Virus record (IMG/VR): IMGVR_UViG_3300035698_005927
Location: 1 to 23,126 of that record
DNA: 23,126 nt
From: a virus
Direction: 5' to 3' (one strand)
In this document: piece after piece, positions 10,400 to 22,997 of the stretch
Layout of the letters: the number at the start of each line of letters is the position of its first letter
Position numbering within the stretch: the first letter of the stretch is position 1
The notes under the pieces: generated by a model
The model's input: the letters and a program-made list of their open reading frames with translations, nothing else
Told to the model about the DNA's origin: nothing
Databases searched by the model: none
Position numbers and translations under genes: made by a program

Positions 10400-10534
10400 C
10401 AAATATTATGCCTTATTATTATATATAATATTTATTATTGTTTAATTATTTTTTAATGTGGTATAATTTGAAAAAAAAAAATTAATATATAAAAACGATT
10501 ATTCATTAAATTGAAAAAAATAAAATATATAAAC

Positions 10535-13500
10535 ATGTCAATTAGCGATAGAAACTTAGGAAAATATAAAGTTCCTTCAATTTATATTGAAGAGGATGAT
10601 AAATCTATCATAGAGCTTCCTATACAAGAAGTTTTAATAAATTTAGTACCTGGTTTTTCAAAAAAAGGACCTTTTAATAAACCAGTTAAAGTAAGCACTC
10701 CACAGGAATTTGAGGAAATCTTTGGTACATTAGATAAATATTTAGAAAATAAAGGATCATTTTTTCATAGAACAGTATTAACAATGTTAGATCAAGGACC
10801 TGTTTGGGCTTTGAATTTATTAAACACAGATCTAACTAGAGATAAATTAAAATGGAAATCAATATCATTATCATCACAATATGATAATGGATCATTAATA
10901 TCTTCACCATATGAAAGATTTTTTAATAGACAAGATTTTTGGGAAAGAGACGATGATTCTTTTAATGATATTGTTGTAGAAAATAATAGTGGGGTTGAAG
11001 ATGATGATAGATTATTTCATATTACAAATATGTCAGATAAAACAATTACCTCTTTTATGTATAAATCAAATATTACAGGATTCGATATTCCGGCGGAAGA
11101 TTGGTATAATGGGCAGGATAAAGTACCATTATTTATGAATAAAAAAGATTGGATTTCTGATTATATGATTAGTGTTCTAGTAGTAAATGGGGATTGGTCA
11201 AATTATACAGAATTAAGTTCAGATAGTATTTGGAGTACATATTTTAATGAAAATGGATTAATAAAAAGTAAAATTGAAGATTTTGCAAATCATAGATTAG
11301 TAACTAGATTAGCTTTTTATGATGTGTCTTTAATTCCTAATTTTAAGGATTTAGATAATAGAGATATGTTTATTAAAAATGTCATTAATAATGATACAGA
11401 TAAAACTGGATTATTTTGTTCTTATAATGATAGTGAATTATTAGGTTCTGATTATTATAAAGGAAAAATTGATTTAATTGGTCAGACATTAGTTGGATTA
11501 GATGGTGATTCCGTTACAGTTGGTACACAACCGAAAACATCAATTGATTTTTTATCATATGAAACATCTATTAGTGAATCAATAACATTTGATACCAAAG
11601 AGTTAAATTCATCAAGTAATGTTTTTGCTAATTATGCATCAGATATGAGGTCAGTATATATGTCAGGGAGAACAGGAGATTATACTAACTGGTATACTGC
11701 TGATATAGATTATGACACGTCATCATCAACACATACCAGTCTTATATCATGTGATGGGACAACTCTTACTTTGTCTTCTACTACTTCATTATCTGTTGAT
11801 GATATAATTTATTTCAATGTAGATTTTGGTATTATTGATAAATCAACTTCATATTATGTAAATTATATAAGTGGGGATGATATAAAAATAACAACAGAAT
11901 TAGATGGACCAGATTTAAATGGAATAGTTTCAGGTACTACTGAAGATATTGCTATTTATAAAGTATCTTATGATTTTACTAGTACTTCAGGATATTATAA
12001 TATAGGTGGATCCAGATATTATTTAACAGGGTCTACAAATGCTTATATTAATCCATTTACGATATCAAGTACTGGTGCAACATATAGTAAATATGATGTG
12101 TTTTATTTGAATAGTGATAATACAAAAATTAACTCTCTTGCTGGTGTCCAATATGTTGGTACATCTCCAACAAAACCAAATTATATATTGGATAATAATA
12201 ATACAATAATTCTTGGTTATGGAAAAACTACCTATACAGCAGGCGTATTTACTCAAGAATACACCGCTGTTACTGTAGATACTAGTGGGTATAAGACATT
12301 AAAAAATGCTAATCTAACAAATCTTAGTGGAACAACATCATCACTCATTAACTATATGGATATTATATTTAATGATACTTCGGGTTCTAGTAGTGATTGG
12401 ACAAATTATGATAAATTAAGATACTTAAAAATTTATAATGAAATATCGACTAATTTGGTATTAGGTAAAGGAGATATAATAAATCTAGTAACTGGTTATA
12501 AGTTTCCAATAGAAACTGTTTCAAGTTATGATGCAACCCTAGTGGATAATGCTAGGATAAGAATTTACTTTGATGATACTGAACAACCTTATGAATACAT
12601 GAGTGCTATTAGTGATGGATCAACTGTAACAAATAGAGTTATTTTATATTATACTGATGATGAATTTGATGTAGGGACCGGTGATATTGCTGAAATAGTA
12701 AGTTATAATTCGCCAGTATCTACTACAAACGGTATTGTTGGTAAATATTCATCACTTTATTTATCTTATTTTAATGGTAATATAAATAATGGCGATTATA
12801 TATGGATGAATAATGATTCTGGTACAACTCAAAAATATTGGCTAAAAATCTATTTAGATGGAGATAGCAATATGATATTAACTTTCTTAGATCAACTATT
12901 ACCACCAAATACAACGACTATATCAGGTTTTAGTACTGATTATAATAATCAATTAATAGTTTATTCTGATAAAGATAATTTGAAACAAACATTAGAAATA
13001 GAGAATCCTGGTTCAATAACTGATTTAACTAATACAACAACTATTTATGTGAATAAGTCAAGATATTCTGAAGTCACAAAAGGATCATTCTTAGAAGCAT
13101 ATTATGATATATCATATTATGATTCACCAGGTCAAGGGTATATAAATGGTGAAATGCCTAAAAAGTTTGTTAGAATTGAAAATGTTATAAATGATACAGT
13201 TGATACAACTCTTAAAATCATTTATACTGATGGTCCAATAAAAGTATCAAATAATTTAACAGGTGGTACTGATTATTATACAACAACATATACTTCAATT
13301 GATAATTATGTTACCGAATATAAGGGTATAACAATTACACCATTTATTGTACATTCTGATTCTATACCAAACGGAACAGAAGCACGTCAAACAACAATTA
13401 TGAATGCTGTTGAAAAAGGAACAAGATTATATAGTGGATTGATTAATAAAAATAGAATATCGTGGAGATATTTAGTTGATCCATTTGGATTAGGTTTAAT

Positions 13501-14356
13501 TGCAAATTCTAAGCAACAATTTGTTGATTTATGTGGATATAAATTGAATTGTTTAGGTTTTCTTAATATGCCTAGTGCTAGAATGTTTAAAAAATCAACA
13601 AATCCAATATTTATAGATTCTGATTATTCTATTAATATGAATTATGTTAAAGAAGGTGGAGATTCAAGTAAGAATCCTGATTTTTATTATTCATTTGGTG
13701 AAGGTATTGGTCAATCATGTGTATCTTATTGGTTTCCTTATATTAAAACCGATGAGGAATCACAGAAATTTATACCCCCATCAGCAGAAATTGCTAAAAC
13801 ATATATGAATAAATTCACATCAGTTAATAGTAATATAAAACCTTGGACAATTTTGGGTGGTGTAATTAAAGGAAATCTATTTAATGTTAAAGAAACTGAA
13901 ATTAGGTTTACTAATGAGGATTTAGAACCATTACATGAAATGAATAGTAACCCAATTGATTATGTTGAAAATTATGGTTATATAATTAATAGTGATAATT
14001 CAGCTCAATCATATCCATATTCATCATTAAGTTTAATTCATACTAGAGAAGTATTAATAGAATTAGAAAATAGACTTTATGATATGTTGTTAAATTACCA
14101 TTGGAGATTTAATACTCCGGAAATTAGATCAGAAATTAAATTTAGAGCAGATCAAATTTGTAAAGAATTAAAAGAATCTGATGCATTATATAATTTTAAA
14201 AACGTTTGTGATAAAACAAACAACACTGATTATATAATAGGTTTACAAAAGGGAATATTAGATACATATGTTGAAGTTATAAAGGGAATGGGAATTATTA
14301 TTAATCAAATTACTATACTCAAAAAAGGAACTATTGATTCATCTGGGTTCAGATAA
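10535..14356 (+). CDS. Contractile tail sheath protein, unusually long
   Basis: The sheath polymer surrounds the tail tube and contracts on infection. The N-terminus fits the family: a short lead-in (KYKVPSIYIEEDD), VPGFSKKGPFNKPVKVSTPQEFEEIFG (about 48-75) and VLTMLDQGPVWALNLLNT. So does the C-terminal third: GTRLYSGLINKNRISWRYLVDPFG, the long GVIKGNLFNVKETEIRFTNEDLEPLHEMN segment, a helix with Arg (LLNYHWRFNTPEIRSEI) and the final strand INQITILKKGTI. At 1273 residues it is about twice T4 gp18 (659). The extra length is a Ser/Thr/Tyr/Asp-rich beta-like region at roughly 330-920, probably surface domains. A TTG at 10511 is in frame, but ATG 10535 starts the recognisable protein. A strong terminator follows. 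Confidence 0.9.
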   Translation: MSISDRNLGKYKVPSIYIEEDDKSIIELPIQEVLINLVPGFSKKGPFNKPVKVSTPQEFEEIFGTLDKYLENKGSFFHRTVLTMLDQGPVWALNLLNTDLTRDKLKWKSISLSSQYDNGSLISSPYERFFNRQDFWERDDDSFNDIVVENNSGVEDDDRLFHITNMSDKTITSFMYKSNITGFDIPAEDWYNGQDKVPLFMNKKDWISDYMISVLVVNGDWSNYTELSSDSIWSTYFNENGLIKSKIEDFANHRLVTRLAFYDVSLIPNFKDLDNRDMFIKNVINNDTDKTGLFCSYNDSELLGSDYYKGKIDLIGQTLVGLDGDSVTVGTQPKTSIDFLSYETSISESITFDTKELNSSSNVFANYASDMRSVYMSGRTGDYTNWYTADIDYDTSSSTHTSLISCDGTTLTLSSTTSLSVDDIIYFNVDFGIIDKSTSYYVNYISGDDIKITTELDGPDLNGIVSGTTEDIAIYKVSYDFTSTSGYYNIGGSRYYLTGSTNAYINPFTISSTGATYSKYDVFYLNSDNTKINSLAGVQYVGTSPTKPNYILDNNNTIILGYGKTTYTAGVFTQEYTAVTVDTSGYKTLKNANLTNLSGTTSSLINYMDIIFNDTSGSSSDWTNYDKLRYLKIYNEISTNLVLGKGDIINLVTGYKFPIETVSSYDATLVDNARIRIYFDDTEQPYEYMSAISDGSTVTNRVILYYTDDEFDVGTGDIAEIVSYNSPVSTTNGIVGKYSSLYLSYFNGNINNGDYIWMNNDSGTTQKYWLKIYLDGDSNMILTFLDQLLPPNTTTISGFSTDYNNQLIVYSDKDNLKQTLEIENPGSITDLTNTTTIYVNKSRYSEVTKGSFLEAYYDISYYDSPGQGYINGEMPKKFVRIENVINDTVDTTLKIIYTDGPIKVSNNLTGGTDYYTTTYTSIDNYVTEYKGITITPFIVHSDSIPNGTEARQTTIMNAVEKGTRLYSGLINKNRISWRYLVDPFGLGLIANSKQQFVDLCGYKLNCLGFLNMPSARMFKKSTNPIFIDSDYSINMNYVKEGGDSSKNPDFYYSFGEGIGQSCVSYWFPYIKTDEESQKFIPPSAEIAKTYMNKFTSVNSNIKPWTILGGVIKGNLFNVKETEIRFTNEDLEPLHEMNSNPIDYVENYGYIINSDNSAQSYPYSSLSLIHTREVLIELENRLYDMLLNYHWRFNTPEIRSEIKFRADQICKELKESDALYNFKNVCDKTNNTDYIIGLQKGILDTYVEVIKGMGIIINQITILKKGTIDSSGFR

Positions 14357-18097: not shown

Positions 18098-18691
18098 ATG
18101 AAATACATAAAAGAATATAATGAATATATAGATCCTTTTAATGAGGAGGATTGGAATGAAGTAGAACCTGATGGTACATTTCTTACATGGTTAAAGATTA
18201 ATTATCCTGATGAAGATACATGGAAAGATATAACATGGATTAATTGTTCTAATAAAGAATTAACTGATTTAATTGGTATTGATAAATTAATTAATTTAGA
18301 ATATTTATTTTGTGATAATAATCAATTGACTGAATTAGACGTTAGTAAGAATATTAAATTAAAAACTTTAACTTGTTCTAATAATCAATTAACTAAATTA
18401 GATGTAACTAAAAATATTAAATTAGAAGAATTATATTGTGATAATAATTCATTAACAGAATTAGATGTAACTAAGAGTATTAAATTAAAAGAATTATCTT
18501 GTTCTAATCAATTAACAGAATTAGATGTGACTAAAAATATTAATTTGGAAAAATTATTTTGTGATAATAATCAGATAATTGAATTAGATTTAACTAAAAA
18601 TATTGAATTAATAACTTTAAATTGTGATAATAATCCATTAAATGAATTAGATGTAACTAAGAATATTAAATTAAAACATTTTAAGAAATGA
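18098..18691 (+). CDS. Leucine-rich-repeat protein, tandem copy 1
   Basis: The 197-residue protein has an N-terminal domain (1-60: MKYIKEYNEYIDPFNEEDW, then TWLKINYPDEDTWKDI) followed by six or seven 21-residue leucine-rich repeats of the form L-x-C-D-N-N-Q-L-T-E-L-D-V-T-K-N-I-K-L. Each repeat has a Cys before the Asn-Asn pair, giving a Cys/Asn ladder; one repeat lacks an Asn (SCSNQ, about 135). LRR proteins bind other proteins. The N-terminus K-E-Y-N-E-Y-I resembles the capsid-targeting-like leaders of other genes here. The stop TGA overlaps the ATG of the next copy (ATGA, 18688-18691). There is no signal peptide, so it acts inside the cell or in the virion. Confidence 0.8.
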   Translation: MKYIKEYNEYIDPFNEEDWNEVEPDGTFLTWLKINYPDEDTWKDITWINCSNKELTDLIGIDKLINLEYLFCDNNQLTELDVSKNIKLKTLTCSNNQLTKLDVTKNIKLEELYCDNNSLTELDVTKSIKLKELSCSNQLTELDVTKNINLEKLFCDNNQIIELDLTKNIELITLNCDNNPLNELDVTKNIKLKHFKK

Positions 18692-18887: not shown

Positions 18888-19421
18888 ATGAAATATATAA
18901 AAGAATATAATGAATATGTTGATCCTTTTGATGAGGATGATTGGGATGAAGTAGAACCAGATGGTAAATTTCTTACATGGTTAAAAATTAATCATTCTGA
19001 TGAAGATACATGGAAAGATATAAAAGAAATTAATTGTGGTTATCAAAATTTAACTGATTTAATTGGAATTGATAAATTAATTAATTTAGAATATTTAATT
19101 TGTGATTATAATCAATTAACTGAATTAGATTTAAGTAATAATATTAATTTAAGAGTTTTATCTTGTTATGATAATCAATTAACTAAATTAGATGTAACCA
19201 AGAATATTAAATTAGTAGGATTATATTGCGATCATAATCAATTAACTAAATTAGATGTAACCAAGAATATTAATTTAAAATTTTTAGAATGCGATCATAA
19301 TCAATTAACTAAATTAGATTTAAGTAAGAATATTAAATTAATAGATTTATATTGTGAAAATAATCAATTAATTGAATTAGATGTAACTAAAAATATTAAA
19401 TTAAAATATTTTAATAAATGA
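18888..19421 (+). CDS. Leucine-rich-repeat protein, tandem copy 3
   Basis: A 177-residue paralogue of copy 1 with the same N-terminal domain (MKYIKEYNEYVDPFDEDDWDEVEPDG) and about five or six 21-residue repeats (LTELDLSNNINLRVLSCYDNQ and similar). It has fewer repeats than copy 1 and several substitutions at variable positions after the Cys (CDYNQ, CYDNQ, CDHNQ, CENNQ), the residues expected on the concave binding face. The two adjacent CDHNQ units look like a recent internal duplication. Its stop overlaps a truncated fourth start (ATGA at 19418). Function is unknown; binding of a host or virion protein is plausible. Confidence 0.8.
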   Translation: MKYIKEYNEYVDPFDEDDWDEVEPDGKFLTWLKINHSDEDTWKDIKEINCGYQNLTDLIGIDKLINLEYLICDYNQLTELDLSNNINLRVLSCYDNQLTKLDVTKNIKLVGLYCDHNQLTKLDVTKNINLKFLECDHNQLTKLDLSKNIKLIDLYCENNQLIELDVTKNIKLKYFNK

Positions 19422-20390: not shown

Positions 20391-21170
20391 ATGAATTCAA
20401 TGGAGAAATATGTAGATAACAATTTGTTTTCAATACTAAAAAGTAATGGTAAAAGTAAATCAATTGATGATTTTAATATTTGTGAAGAATATATTAAAAG
20501 ATTTAATGAAACCCCTTCAGTTTTAAAAATAGTTAATGATGATATAGATTTTTTTAATGTAATTATAATAAGAGAAGAATTAATAAAAATTTTTCCAAAA
20601 ATAAAATTATTATTTAAGGATTCTAGTTATTATTTAAAAAATAAACGAAATATATCTAAAAGAGAAATATGGTTAATAGATGATGGGTATATTATGGATT
20701 TAAGTATCGATAGGGCGTATTCGTTTTTTAATGATCCTAAAAATGATTTAGGTGTCGATAAATTTTTTGAATTATGTGATTATAATATTGTCGCTATTCC
20801 AAATAACACATCTAAATTTTATAATGAAGAAATTAATAAAAAATTATATCAAATTTTTGATAAATCAATAATAAAAGAAAATAAAAGATCGTCTATCGGT
20901 ATGGTTGCCATTGATAATGGAGAGTTATATGTTAAAGATTTTAGTTTTAGAAAAAATATCATTTTAAGGAATATGGATTTGCATTATGGGGATGGATTTA
21001 CTATTTTTGATAAGAAATTAATAAAAAAATTAAAAAAGGATAAAAAAGGATTAGTACTATTTCATGGATTACCTGGTACTGGTAAGTGTGTAAGAAAAAA
21101 TACAAATATTACAGTTAGGAATAAAATTACTGGTGAAATTGAAAACATTAATATATCTGATTTAATGTAG
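20391..21170 (+). CDS. AAA+ ATPase N-terminal half fused to a 27-aa N-intein
   Basis: The 259-residue product is the first half of an AAA+ ATPase cut in the middle of its P-loop. Residues 1-232 are the N-extein: an N-terminal domain, then LVLFHGLPGTGK, a Walker A motif stopping at its Lys. C233 starts an N-intein of 27 residues (CVRKNTNITV, then GEIENINISDLM), with the catalytic first Cys and block A followed by an immediate stop. ATG 20391 is chosen because the frame upstream covers the divergent promoter gap; ATG 20400 is an alternative. After trans-splicing with the product of 22125-22997, Lys232 should be joined to Thr to restore GLPGTGKT. Alone this half lacks Walker B and should be inactive. 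Confidence 0.85.
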   Translation: MNSMEKYVDNNLFSILKSNGKSKSIDDFNICEEYIKRFNETPSVLKIVNDDIDFFNVIIIREELIKIFPKIKLLFKDSSYYLKNKRNISKREIWLIDDGYIMDLSIDRAYSFFNDPKNDLGVDKFFELCDYNIVAIPNNTSKFYNEEINKKLYQIFDKSIIKENKRSSIGMVAIDNGELYVKDFSFRKNIILRNMDLHYGDGFTIFDKKLIKKLKKDKKGLVLFHGLPGTGKCVRKNTNITVRNKITGEIENINISDLM

Positions 21171-21175
21171 TTTTT

Positions 21176-21187
21176 CCATTACCAGGT
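21176..21187. repeat. Inverted near-copy of the P-loop coding sequence
   Basis: CCATTACCAGGT is the reverse complement of ACCTGGTAATGG, matching 11 of 12 bases of the P-loop codons ACCTGGTACTGG at 21071-21082. The two copies bracket the N-intein coding segment and could pair in RNA, or be a remnant of the insertion event. Confidence 0.45.
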
Positions 21188-21189
21188 TT

Positions 21190-21202
21190 TTATATATAAA
21201 TA
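21190..21202 (+). promoter_or_regulatory. Promoter-like motif of the endonuclease gene
   Basis: TTATATATAA (21190-21199) overlaps TATAAATA (21195-21202), identical to the T4 late promoter -10 consensus. It lies 12 bp before the endonuclease ATG in the short gap after the first ATPase half, so the endonuclease may be transcribed separately. Confidence 0.4.
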
Positions 21203-21214
21203 TAAAAATTTATT

Positions 21215-22123
21215 ATGAAAAAGAAACGAATAACAATATATCATGAAGATTATTGGTTGAGAAAAGGATACACGCAAGAAGAATCAATAAAAAAAATAAA
21301 ACAATGTAAAAAAGAAACATCGTGTTGGAATAAAGAATTTTGGATTAAAAAGGGATTTAATGAAAATGATGCAATTGAAAAAGTCAAAGAAAAACAATTT
21401 CAAAATCAACAAAGACGAAATAAAGAATCATATTCTACTATGTTAAATCCTTATCAAAAAGAATATTGGATAAAGAAGGGTTATACCCAAGATGAATCAA
21501 TAGAAAAAATAAAACAATGTAAGATAAAATCAAATCCTTATAACGTTTTGAGTAAAGATGATAAAGAAAAAATGTTAGATAATAGAAAGAAAACTTATTA
21601 TTCTAAGAGTGTAGAAGAAAGAAATAAGATAAATAAAAGTCGTGGAATAACAAAAGATAAATTAATTGAAAAATATGGATTATTGATTGCTAATGAAATG
21701 ACTAAAAATAGAGGAAGAAGATTAAAAAATGTATTTTTAAGATATAGTAAAATATCTAAAATGTTTTTTGATAAAATTCAAGATAAATTACCAGATATTG
21801 ATTTGTATTATGGAAATGATGAAAAATGGATAAGAAAAAATAAAAATAAAGGTTATTTTATTGATATGGTAATAGGAGAAACAAATAAAATAATTGAGTT
21901 TAATGGAGACTTTTTTCATGCAAATCCTAAACTATATCATGAAAAAAGTCTAATAAATATATCAAAAGATAAAAAATTATATGCTAAAGATATTTGGATT
22001 AAAGATAAAGAAAAAATAGATTTTTTATCAAAAGAATATGACGTTTATATAGTTTGGGAAAATGATGTTAAAACTAATATAGATAATGAAATAAATAAGT
22101 GTATAGATTTTATAAAAAAATGA
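21215..22123 (+). CDS. Free-standing homing endonuclease, Vsr/EDxHD-like
   Basis: The 302-residue protein has three copies of a DNA-binding-type helix repeat, Y/F-W-h-K/R-K-G-[YF]-[TN]-x-[DE]-[ED]-[SA]-I-x-K (13-31, 42-58, 84-102), then a helix with KLIEKYGLLIANEMTKNRGR (149-168). A C-terminal nuclease domain follows: GYFIDMVIGETNKIIEFNGDFFHANP (213-238), with D217, E228, D232 and H235 as catalytic candidates, and an end reading KDKEKIDFLSKEYDVYIVWENDV, the 'L...GY.V..IWE.D' signature of Vsr-like endonucleases. Homing endonucleases cut an intein-less allele so that the element is copied in by repair. Its position between the two halves of a split-intein gene matches the known 'fractured gene' arrangement. 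The stop is one base before the ATG of the second half, suggesting coupled translation. Confidence 0.85.
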   Translation: MKKKRITIYHEDYWLRKGYTQEESIKKIKQCKKETSCWNKEFWIKKGFNENDAIEKVKEKQFQNQQRRNKESYSTMLNPYQKEYWIKKGYTQDESIEKIKQCKIKSNPYNVLSKDDKEKMLDNRKKTYYSKSVEERNKINKSRGITKDKLIEKYGLLIANEMTKNRGRRLKNVFLRYSKISKMFFDKIQDKLPDIDLYYGNDEKWIRKNKNKGYFIDMVIGETNKIIEFNGDFFHANPKLYHEKSLINISKDKKLYAKDIWIKDKEKIDFLSKEYDVYIVWENDVKTNIDNEINKCIDFIKK

Positions 22124-22124
22124 A

Positions 22125-22997
22125 ATGATTATGGATAAGAAAATAGTTAATACAAAAATTTTGAATGATTATGAAGTGTTAAGTGAAGATGGTTGGAAAA
22201 ATATAAAAGCAATACATAAAACAATTGATTATGAAATTTATATTTTTAAAACAGAAAATAAAATGTTGGAATGTGCTGATAATCACATTGTGTTTTTAGA
22301 TGGGTATGAAAATATATATGTTAAAGATTTGAAAATAGGCGATAATATAATCACTAAGGATGGCATTGAAGAAATAATTGATATTAAAAAAACTGGATAT
22401 TATGAAGAAATGTATGATTTAGAATTAGATGATAATAATTTTAAGTATTACACAAATGATATATTAAGTCATAATACATATTATATTAGATATTTATTAT
22501 CTAAATTAACTAAAGAAGATAAAAATATATTATATTTCCCCCCATCTATGATAAATTCTATAACAGATCCAAGTTTTGTTAATTTTATTAATTCATGGAT
22601 TAATGATAATGAAAAAAGTTGTATTATATTGATAGAGGACGCTGAACCATTACTTGTATCAAGAAATAATGATGATAGAAATATGGGAATTACTAATTTA
22701 CTAAATCTAACAGATGGGGTATTGAATGATATATTTGGCATTCAGATTATTGCAACATTTAATACAGATTTGAATAGTTTAGATGACGCTCTTCTAAGAC
22801 CTGAAAGATTAATAGCTCGAAAAGAATTCAACCCCTTATCAAAAAATAGATCAATTGAATTATTTGAAAAATTAAAAATAGATAAAAATCGAGTTAAAGA
22901 CAATATGACATTAGCTGAAATATATTCTATAAAAAAGAAAAATGAAATATTATTACATGATGTTAATGATAAAAGAATTAAAATAGGATTTAATTAA
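22125..22997 (+). CDS. 117-aa C-intein fused to the AAA+ ATPase C-terminal half
   Basis: Residues 1-117 are a C-intein. It has a block B variant LECADNHIVF (H54), the following VKDLKIGDNIIT (66-77), block F MYDLELDDNNFKYY (96-109) and block G NDILSHN (111-117) with the penultimate His116 and terminal Asn117. Thr118 is the first C-extein residue and completes Walker A. The C-extein (118-290) has Walker B CIILIEDAEPLL (E171, D172), sensor 1 ATFNTD (N213) and the arginine-finger segment LDDALLRPERL (219-229, R225), typical of AAA+ ATPases of the BCS1-like type. There is no endonuclease domain within the intein. The spliced ATPase would have about 405 residues. ATG 22131 is an alternative start. 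The substrate is unknown. Confidence 0.9.
   Translation: MIMDKKIVNTKILNDYEVLSEDGWKNIKAIHKTIDYEIYIFKTENKMLECADNHIVFLDGYENIYVKDLKIGDNIITKDGIEEIIDIKKTGYYEEMYDLELDDNNFKYYTNDILSHNTYYIRYLLSKLTKEDKNILYFPPSMINSITDPSFVNFINSWINDNEKSCIILIEDAEPLLVSRNNDDRNMGITNLLNLTDGVLNDIFGIQIIATFNTDLNSLDDALLRPERLIARKEFNPLSKNRSIELFEKLKIDKNRVKDNMTLAEIYSIKKKNEILLHDVNDKRIKIGFN

What the first reader, a model, noticed from the sequence alone, without database searches (positions are those of the whole stretch)
20391..22997. AAA+ ATPase gene fractured in its P-loop by a split intein, with a homing endonuclease gene between the halves
Seen: one ORF ends GLPGTGK-C...stop and another has ...SHN-T followed by Walker B, sensor 1 and arginine-finger motifs, so joining them restores an intact P-loop (GLPGTGKT). 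Known: split inteins trans-splice two polypeptides, and 'fractured genes' with a split intein and an intervening Vsr-like endonuclease have been described from environmental phage sequences, mainly for helicase, reductase and similar genes. Inferred: this is such a locus in a BCS1-like AAA+ ATPase, so enzyme activity depends on splicing between two separately translated proteins. I cannot tell from sequence alone whether this host gene and site are already described.
Basis: partly seen in the sequence, partly recalled or inferred. Interest (0 to 1): 0.9.

Follow-up and report, generated by a model that had tools for sequence, protein, structure and literature searches.

The report
Phage ATPase gene split by intein
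In this fragment of a very large bacterial virus, an ATPase gene is cut in two at its ATP-binding loop by a mobile 'split intein' that should join the two protein halves after they are made, with a DNA-cutting homing gene between them; the arrangement is of a known type but sits in a gene where I found no earlier report of it.

Summary
Residues 1-232 of an AAA+ ATPase are followed by a 27-residue intein N fragment and a stop. A 302-residue endonuclease gene follows, then a 115-residue intein C fragment joined to the remaining 173 ATPase residues. The joined 405-residue protein aligns end to end, with no gap at the P-loop join (GLPGTGK|T), with uninterrupted proteins of a 735-kb phage (51% identity) and other viral contigs. 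The intein belongs with the 'atypically split' terminase (TerL/VidaL-type) inteins; the endonuclease has the Vsr/I-Bth0305I fold. Four further independent contigs carry the same arrangement in the same gene (one is cut off before the C half). In the two pairs tested, the mobile part has about half the synonymous divergence of the flanking ATPase, as expected if it homes. An 80-locus survey shows relatives of this intein fracturing the Walker A motifs of terminase, DnaB/gp41-like helicase, Clp and SMC-like ATPases. Splicing and DNA cleavage are inferred, not shown. 'BCS1-like' fits only the AAA core; no BCS1 N-terminal domain was found. Verdict: a real, probably functional fractured gene; a new host gene for a known kind of element.

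The parts
20391..21086 (+). N-terminal extein of the AAA+ ATPase (232 aa), ending in Walker A ...HGLPGTGK (GLPGTGK codons 21066-21086)
   Evidence: Translation; 50.7% to uninterrupted LR756501 protein across the join; dN/dS 0.33 against L107
21087..21170 (+). Intein N fragment, 27 aa (CVRKNTNITVRNKITGEIENINISDLM) plus TAG stop
   Evidence: aligned with TerL inteins; same length and same stop position in L107, L029, L041 and L129
21171..21214 (+). Non-coding spacer between the IntN stop and the endonuclease; first 38 nt identical to L107; AT-rich, possible promoter
21215..22123 (+). Free-standing homing endonuclease gene (302 aa); helical N-terminal repeats, Vsr/I-Bth0305I-type nuclease domain at about residues 175-302 (about 21737-22120)
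   Evidence: Translation; invariant D217, E228, H235, D264 in eight relatives; fold match to Vsr and I-Bth0305I; relative lies inside a fractured helicase gene in L108
22131..22475 (+). Intein C fragment, 115 aa, with block B (CADNH), block F and block G (DILSHN)
   Evidence: profile hit to VidaL 3e-11
22476..22997 (+). C-terminal extein (173 aa and stop), starting with the Walker A Thr; Walker B (ILIEDAE), sensor 1 (IATFN), arginine finger (LRPERL)
   Evidence: 60% to LR756501 over this part

Best explanation
It is a 'fractured gene'. A naturally and atypically split intein of the TerL/VidaL family (IntN 27 aa, IntC 115 aa) sits between the invariant Lys and Thr of the Walker A loop of a phage AAA+ ATPase, with a free-standing Vsr/I-Bth0305I-type homing endonuclease gene between the halves. 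The two precursor proteins are made separately; IntN and IntC associate; Cys1 and Thr+1 carry out the acyl shifts; Asn115 cyclises; and a 405-residue ATPase with an intact GLPGTGKT loop is released. The endonuclease is expected to cut uninterrupted alleles near the P-loop codons so that repair copies in the whole cassette (homing). Shown: anatomy, homology, conserved catalytic residues, purifying selection, empty and occupied sites, lower synonymous divergence of the cassette. Inferred: splicing, DNA cutting, homing, and dependence of ATPase activity on splicing.
For: Join restores an AAA domain and aligns gaplessly with uninterrupted homologues. Intein catalytic residues and blocks conserved against TerL inteins at the same Lys|Thr site and the same split loop; VidaL profile hit. 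Endonuclease fold. Same arrangement in L029/L030, L041, L129 and, to the contig end, L107. dN/dS 0.13-0.48 for all segments in the two closer pairs. Cassette dS 0.38 against extein 0.72 (window-L107, bootstrap P 0.019) and 0.66 against 1.23 (L029-L041, 0 of 2000). No RNA intron found.
Against: No splicing or cleavage measured. Generic intein models score below their cut-offs (Pfam 17.1 against 35.8 bits; NCBIfam likewise). Foldseek match of the endonuclease is not significant on its own. The dS comparison is a simple method on AT-rich, diverged sequences.
Confidence: 0.9

Rival explanations
1. The two halves work as a two-subunit ATPase without splicing; the intein pieces are inactive remnants that at most hold the halves together.
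For: No splicing data exist; intein halves can bind each other with high affinity (own knowledge).
Against: The break lies inside the Walker A loop between Lys and Thr, where a covalent loop is needed. Cys1, block B His, HN and Thr+1 are all kept, and IntN and IntC are under purifying selection.
Confidence: 0.05
2. A dead ATPase gene: the endonuclease cassette has destroyed the gene and the halves are decaying pseudogene pieces.
For: Selfish endonucleases can inactivate genes; many uninterrupted relatives exist.
Against: Exteins have dN/dS 0.13-0.34 in the closer pairs, both halves are intact in the window, L029, L041 and L129, and the motifs after the join are intact.
Confidence: 0.03
3. An RNA-level intron (group I or II) carrying an endonuclease gene, or an assembly artefact, mimics the split.
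For: Group I introns with endonucleases break terL and other genes in some huge phages (PMC12363816).
Against: No Rfam match of any kind in 20391-22997 at E up to 1. Both ends encode conserved intein blocks. Independent contigs share the arrangement.
Confidence: 0.02

Closest known systems
Fractured genes with split inteins and a Vsr-like homing endonuclease (Dassa et al. 2009, doi 10.1093/nar/gkp095; text not held, known from citations and own knowledge)
   Same: Two gene halves, split intein, free-standing endonuclease gene between them; a relative of this endonuclease sits in a fractured DnaB/gp41-like gene in L108
   Different: Host gene is an AAA+ ATPase; IntN is only 27 aa rather than the long IntN of gp41-1-type split inteins
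TerL P-loop inteins and the atypically split inteins VidaL, AceL-TerL, GOS-TerL
   Same: Homologous intein, same Lys|Thr site of Walker A, same split loop, short IntN
   Different: Sits in a different P-loop family (AAA+ instead of terminase); in SCTP-2 and VmeM-32 the TerL halves lie far apart and without this endonuclease
I-Bth0305I / EDxHD homing endonucleases (PMC3943268)
   Same: Vsr-like nuclease domain with a long multi-part N-terminal region
   Different: I-Bth0305I is encoded in a group I intron in recA (own knowledge); here the gene is free-standing between intein halves
Uninterrupted AAA+ proteins of huge phages (LR756501; MIJ3 'AAA+ ATPase and BCS1 domain protein')
   Same: Full-length homology (51% and about 29%), same Walker A site
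   Different: No intein; one continuous gene

Membership tests
Split intein, TerL/VidaL (atypically split) type | Nucleophile at position 1, block B His, penultimate His, terminal Asn, +1 Cys/Ser/Thr | tested here: met
   Cys1, CADNH, SHN|T conserved with TerL inteins
Split intein, TerL/VidaL (atypically split) type | Halves encoded as separate polypeptides with a short IntN | tested here: met
   27-aa IntN then stop; 33 in-frame stops to IntC
Split intein, TerL/VidaL (atypically split) type | Sequence homology to known members | tested here: met
   VidaL 3e-11 by profile; TerL inteins 5e-17 over full length
Split intein, TerL/VidaL (atypically split) type | Protein trans-splicing activity | not testable with these tools
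   Needs co-expression
Fractured gene | Uninterrupted homologues align across the join | tested here: met
   LR756501, L010, L011, L122, L123, L126
Fractured gene | Free-standing Vsr-like endonuclease gene between the halves | tested here: met
   Own start and stop, 44 nt after the IntN stop; fold match to Vsr and I-Bth0305I
EDxHD homing endonuclease (I-Bth0305I) | Vsr-like catalytic fold | tested here: met
   Z 10.7 over 93 residues, rmsd 2.4; Foldseek E 0.087
EDxHD homing endonuclease (I-Bth0305I) | The E-D-x-H-D catalytic residues | tested here: inconclusive
   D217, E228, H235, D264 invariant in eight relatives, but not mapped residue by residue on I-Bth0305I
EDxHD homing endonuclease (I-Bth0305I) | Site-specific cleavage of the empty allele | not testable with these tools
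   Needs purified enzyme
AAA+ ATPase (PF00004) | AAA domain with Walker A, Walker B, sensor 1, arginine finger after joining | tested here: met
   41.5 bits against cut-off 21.2 over 222-345; motifs
BCS1 | BCS1 N-terminal domain | tested here: not met
   No such Pfam match at E up to 1

The most novel reading that the evidence does not exclude
One lineage of split inteins, with its Vsr-type endonucleases, has specialised on Walker A codons as such and has moved between unrelated P-loop ATPases of huge phages (terminase, DnaB/gp41-like helicase, both Clp P-loops, SMC-like, this AAA+), so that several related split inteins must pair correctly within one phage.
Probability: 0.4. Interest if true: 0.7.

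Novelty: new member of a known kind. Interest (0 to 1): 0.5.

Why it matters
It extends fractured genes to another ATPase of huge phages, gives natural split inteins with a 27-residue N piece (useful for joining proteins to synthetic peptides), and provides matched empty and occupied alleles on which homing into a P-loop can be tested. Automatic annotation will miss such ATPases because neither half alone looks complete.

Tried and rejected
Single-sequence scan of IMG/VR with the C half found nothing; alignment-based scans were needed. A C-extein-only scan found only the uninterrupted relative. A search of LR756501 with an N-fragment sequence that I made up found nothing and is not evidence. 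The inverted repeat between P-loop DNA and spacer (21071-21085 / 21173-21187, 87% complementary) was considered as an RNA element and rejected: it is not kept in L107, L029 or L041. A T4-type late promoter (TATAAATA) before the endonuclease was considered, but the motif is rarer than chance in the window (8 against 17.5 expected). RNA introns: no Rfam match. Structure of the C half: pLDDT 49, not used. Proof that the AAA intein came from TerL or Clp: deep branches are unresolved, and the endonuclease tree does not repeat the weak AAA-Clp link of the intein tree. Literature: no fractured AAA+ or Clp gene found in the held open-licence library, but key papers (Dassa 2009 and the AceL-TerL and VidaL papers) are not held (for Dassa), so absence is not shown.

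Full report
Observation. The window is a 23,126-base virus record. At 20391-21170 lies a 259-residue ORF ending HGLPGTGK-CVRKNTNITVRNKITGEIENINISDLM-stop; at 21215-22123 a 302-residue ORF; at 22131-22997 a 288-residue ORF with ...YYTNDILSHN-TYYIRYLL.... The N-half frame contains 33 stop codons between the intein Cys and the terminal Asn. The finding is described correctly.

The join. The C half alone scores AAA at 5.5e-5 and the N half scores no AAA. The joined 405 residues score 2.2e-10 over 222-345, across the join, and PHROG 14322 improves from 3.6e-13 to 6.4e-20. Uninterrupted relatives exist: LR756501 (735-kb uncultured phage, 50.7% over residues 1-404, no gap at the join), IMG/VR L010 (51%) and L011 (31%), L006 (31%), L122 (45%), L123 (44%), L126 (38%) and L124 (29%, cut by the contig end), and more distant jumbo-phage proteins. 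A 1281-residue protein of the window (10511-14356) is 57% identical to one of LR756501, so the window probably comes from a related huge phage.

The intein. The joined 142 residues match TerL inteins of Vibrio phage VAP7 and relatives over their whole length (5e-17), Kuttervirus TerL inteins such as Det7, and split TerL inteins of Salicola phage SCTP-2, Vibrio phage VmeM-32, Delftia phage phiW14 and Agrobacterium phage Atu_ph07. All lie between the Walker A Lys and Thr of TerL (GK|C or GK|S ... SHN|T). The split loop is the same; IntN lengths run from 27 here to 43. A four-sequence profile hits the solved intein VidaL (3e-11) and gp41-1. PMC10189870 states that natural split inteins typically have an IntN of about 100 residues and that atypically split ones with a short IntN have recently been identified. 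Insertion between Lys and Thr of the P-loop is called 'classic' in PMC5050341.

The endonuclease. Pfam finds nothing. The model built with seven relatives (pLDDT 80) aligns over about residues 175-302 with Vsr (Z 11.4) and with the catalytic domain of I-Bth0305I (Z 10.7), although Foldseek alone gave no E below 0.001. D217, E228, H235 and D264 are invariant in eight relatives. A relative (31%) lies between the halves of a fractured DnaB/gp41-like helicase in L108.

Recurrence. The same order (ATPase N half with a 27-residue IntN ending DLM-stop, endonuclease, IntC with ATPase C half) is found in L029/L030 (identical stretches of a 111-kb and a 405-kb contig), L041 and L129; L107 has the N half and an 82% identical endonuclease before the contig ends. 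IntC starts at or just after the endonuclease stop in the window, L029 and L041, which suggests that the C half is translated from the endonuclease message (inferred).

Evolution. In the two closer pairs every segment is under purifying selection (dN/dS 0.13 to 0.48). Synonymous divergence of the cassette is about half that of the exteins: 0.38 against 0.72 (window-L107, bootstrap P 0.019) and 0.66 against 1.23 (L029-L041, 0 of 2000). This is expected if the cassette spread by homing after the ATPase genes had diverged; dS here is a simple estimate on AT-rich sequences, and the first pair covers only part of the endonuclease. AAA IntCs form one clade (98/83) and AAA endonucleases form one clade (100/100), so this is a cassette specific to this ATPase.

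Wider family. A scan of IMG/VR found 288 relatives of the intein; the best 80 were read. By extein they fall into TerL, Clp D2, DnaB/gp41-like helicase, Clp D1, SMC-like and this AAA+. After removing duplicates, 32 of 57 have a related endonuclease next to IntC. Clp D1 inteins nest among Clp D2 inteins with support, so moves between P-loops have happened at least within Clp; the deeper order is not resolved.

Verdict. Real, and most likely a working fractured gene. The kind is known (fractured genes; TerL-type split inteins); the host gene appears new in what could be searched, but the held literature is incomplete. Splicing, cleavage and the need for splicing remain inferred. The role of the ATPase in the phage is unknown, and it is not shown to be a BCS1.

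Noticed in passing
L093:1445-7152; L106:2547-7116; L073:1933-7161: Clp-type ATPase genes broken at both Walker A sites by related split inteins: in L093 and L106 the middle ORF starts with an IntC and ends with an IntN, so three polypeptides and two trans-splicing events would be needed.
   Followed up: partly
L022:2857-3249 with L013:5007-5900 (SCTP-2); L023:2448-3125 with L014:1102-3216 (VmeM-32): TerL halves of the same intein family lie far apart in the genome: about 173 kb in SCTP-2 and about 77 kb in VmeM-32.
   Followed up: partly
record of L076 (306,333 bases, G004): Eight matches to the intein profile in one phage record, so several related split inteins may have to pair correctly in one cell.
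   Followed up: no
L013:5007-5900; L031:8167-8961; L097:8068-9312: TerL genes with what looks like a second split-intein site downstream of Walker A (the SCTP-2 C piece ends in another IntN-like stretch; L031 and L097 have a second ...HN|C junction).
   Followed up: no
L017:5890-8169: LR756501 carries an IntC-like stretch before TerL whose end reads LNLN|T instead of SHN|T; its N half was not found. It may be a decayed or variant intein.
   Followed up: no
window 21168-21208 and L107:4946-4986: 41 nt from the IntN stop into the spacer are identical between two contigs whose coding parts differ clearly; it may hold a promoter or be recently transferred.
   Followed up: partly
window 1179, 6474, 18098, 18888 (+) and 20301 (-): Several unrelated ORFs start with a similar leader (MIKFNEFF, MVKKFNDF, MKYIKEYNEY, MLKTYNEF), also seen in L005 and L107 ORFs; it resembles capsid-targeting leaders of T4-type internal proteins (own knowledge).
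   Followed up: no
window 18098-18691 and 18888-19421: Two adjacent leucine-rich-repeat-like ORFs that look like a recent duplication.
   Followed up: no
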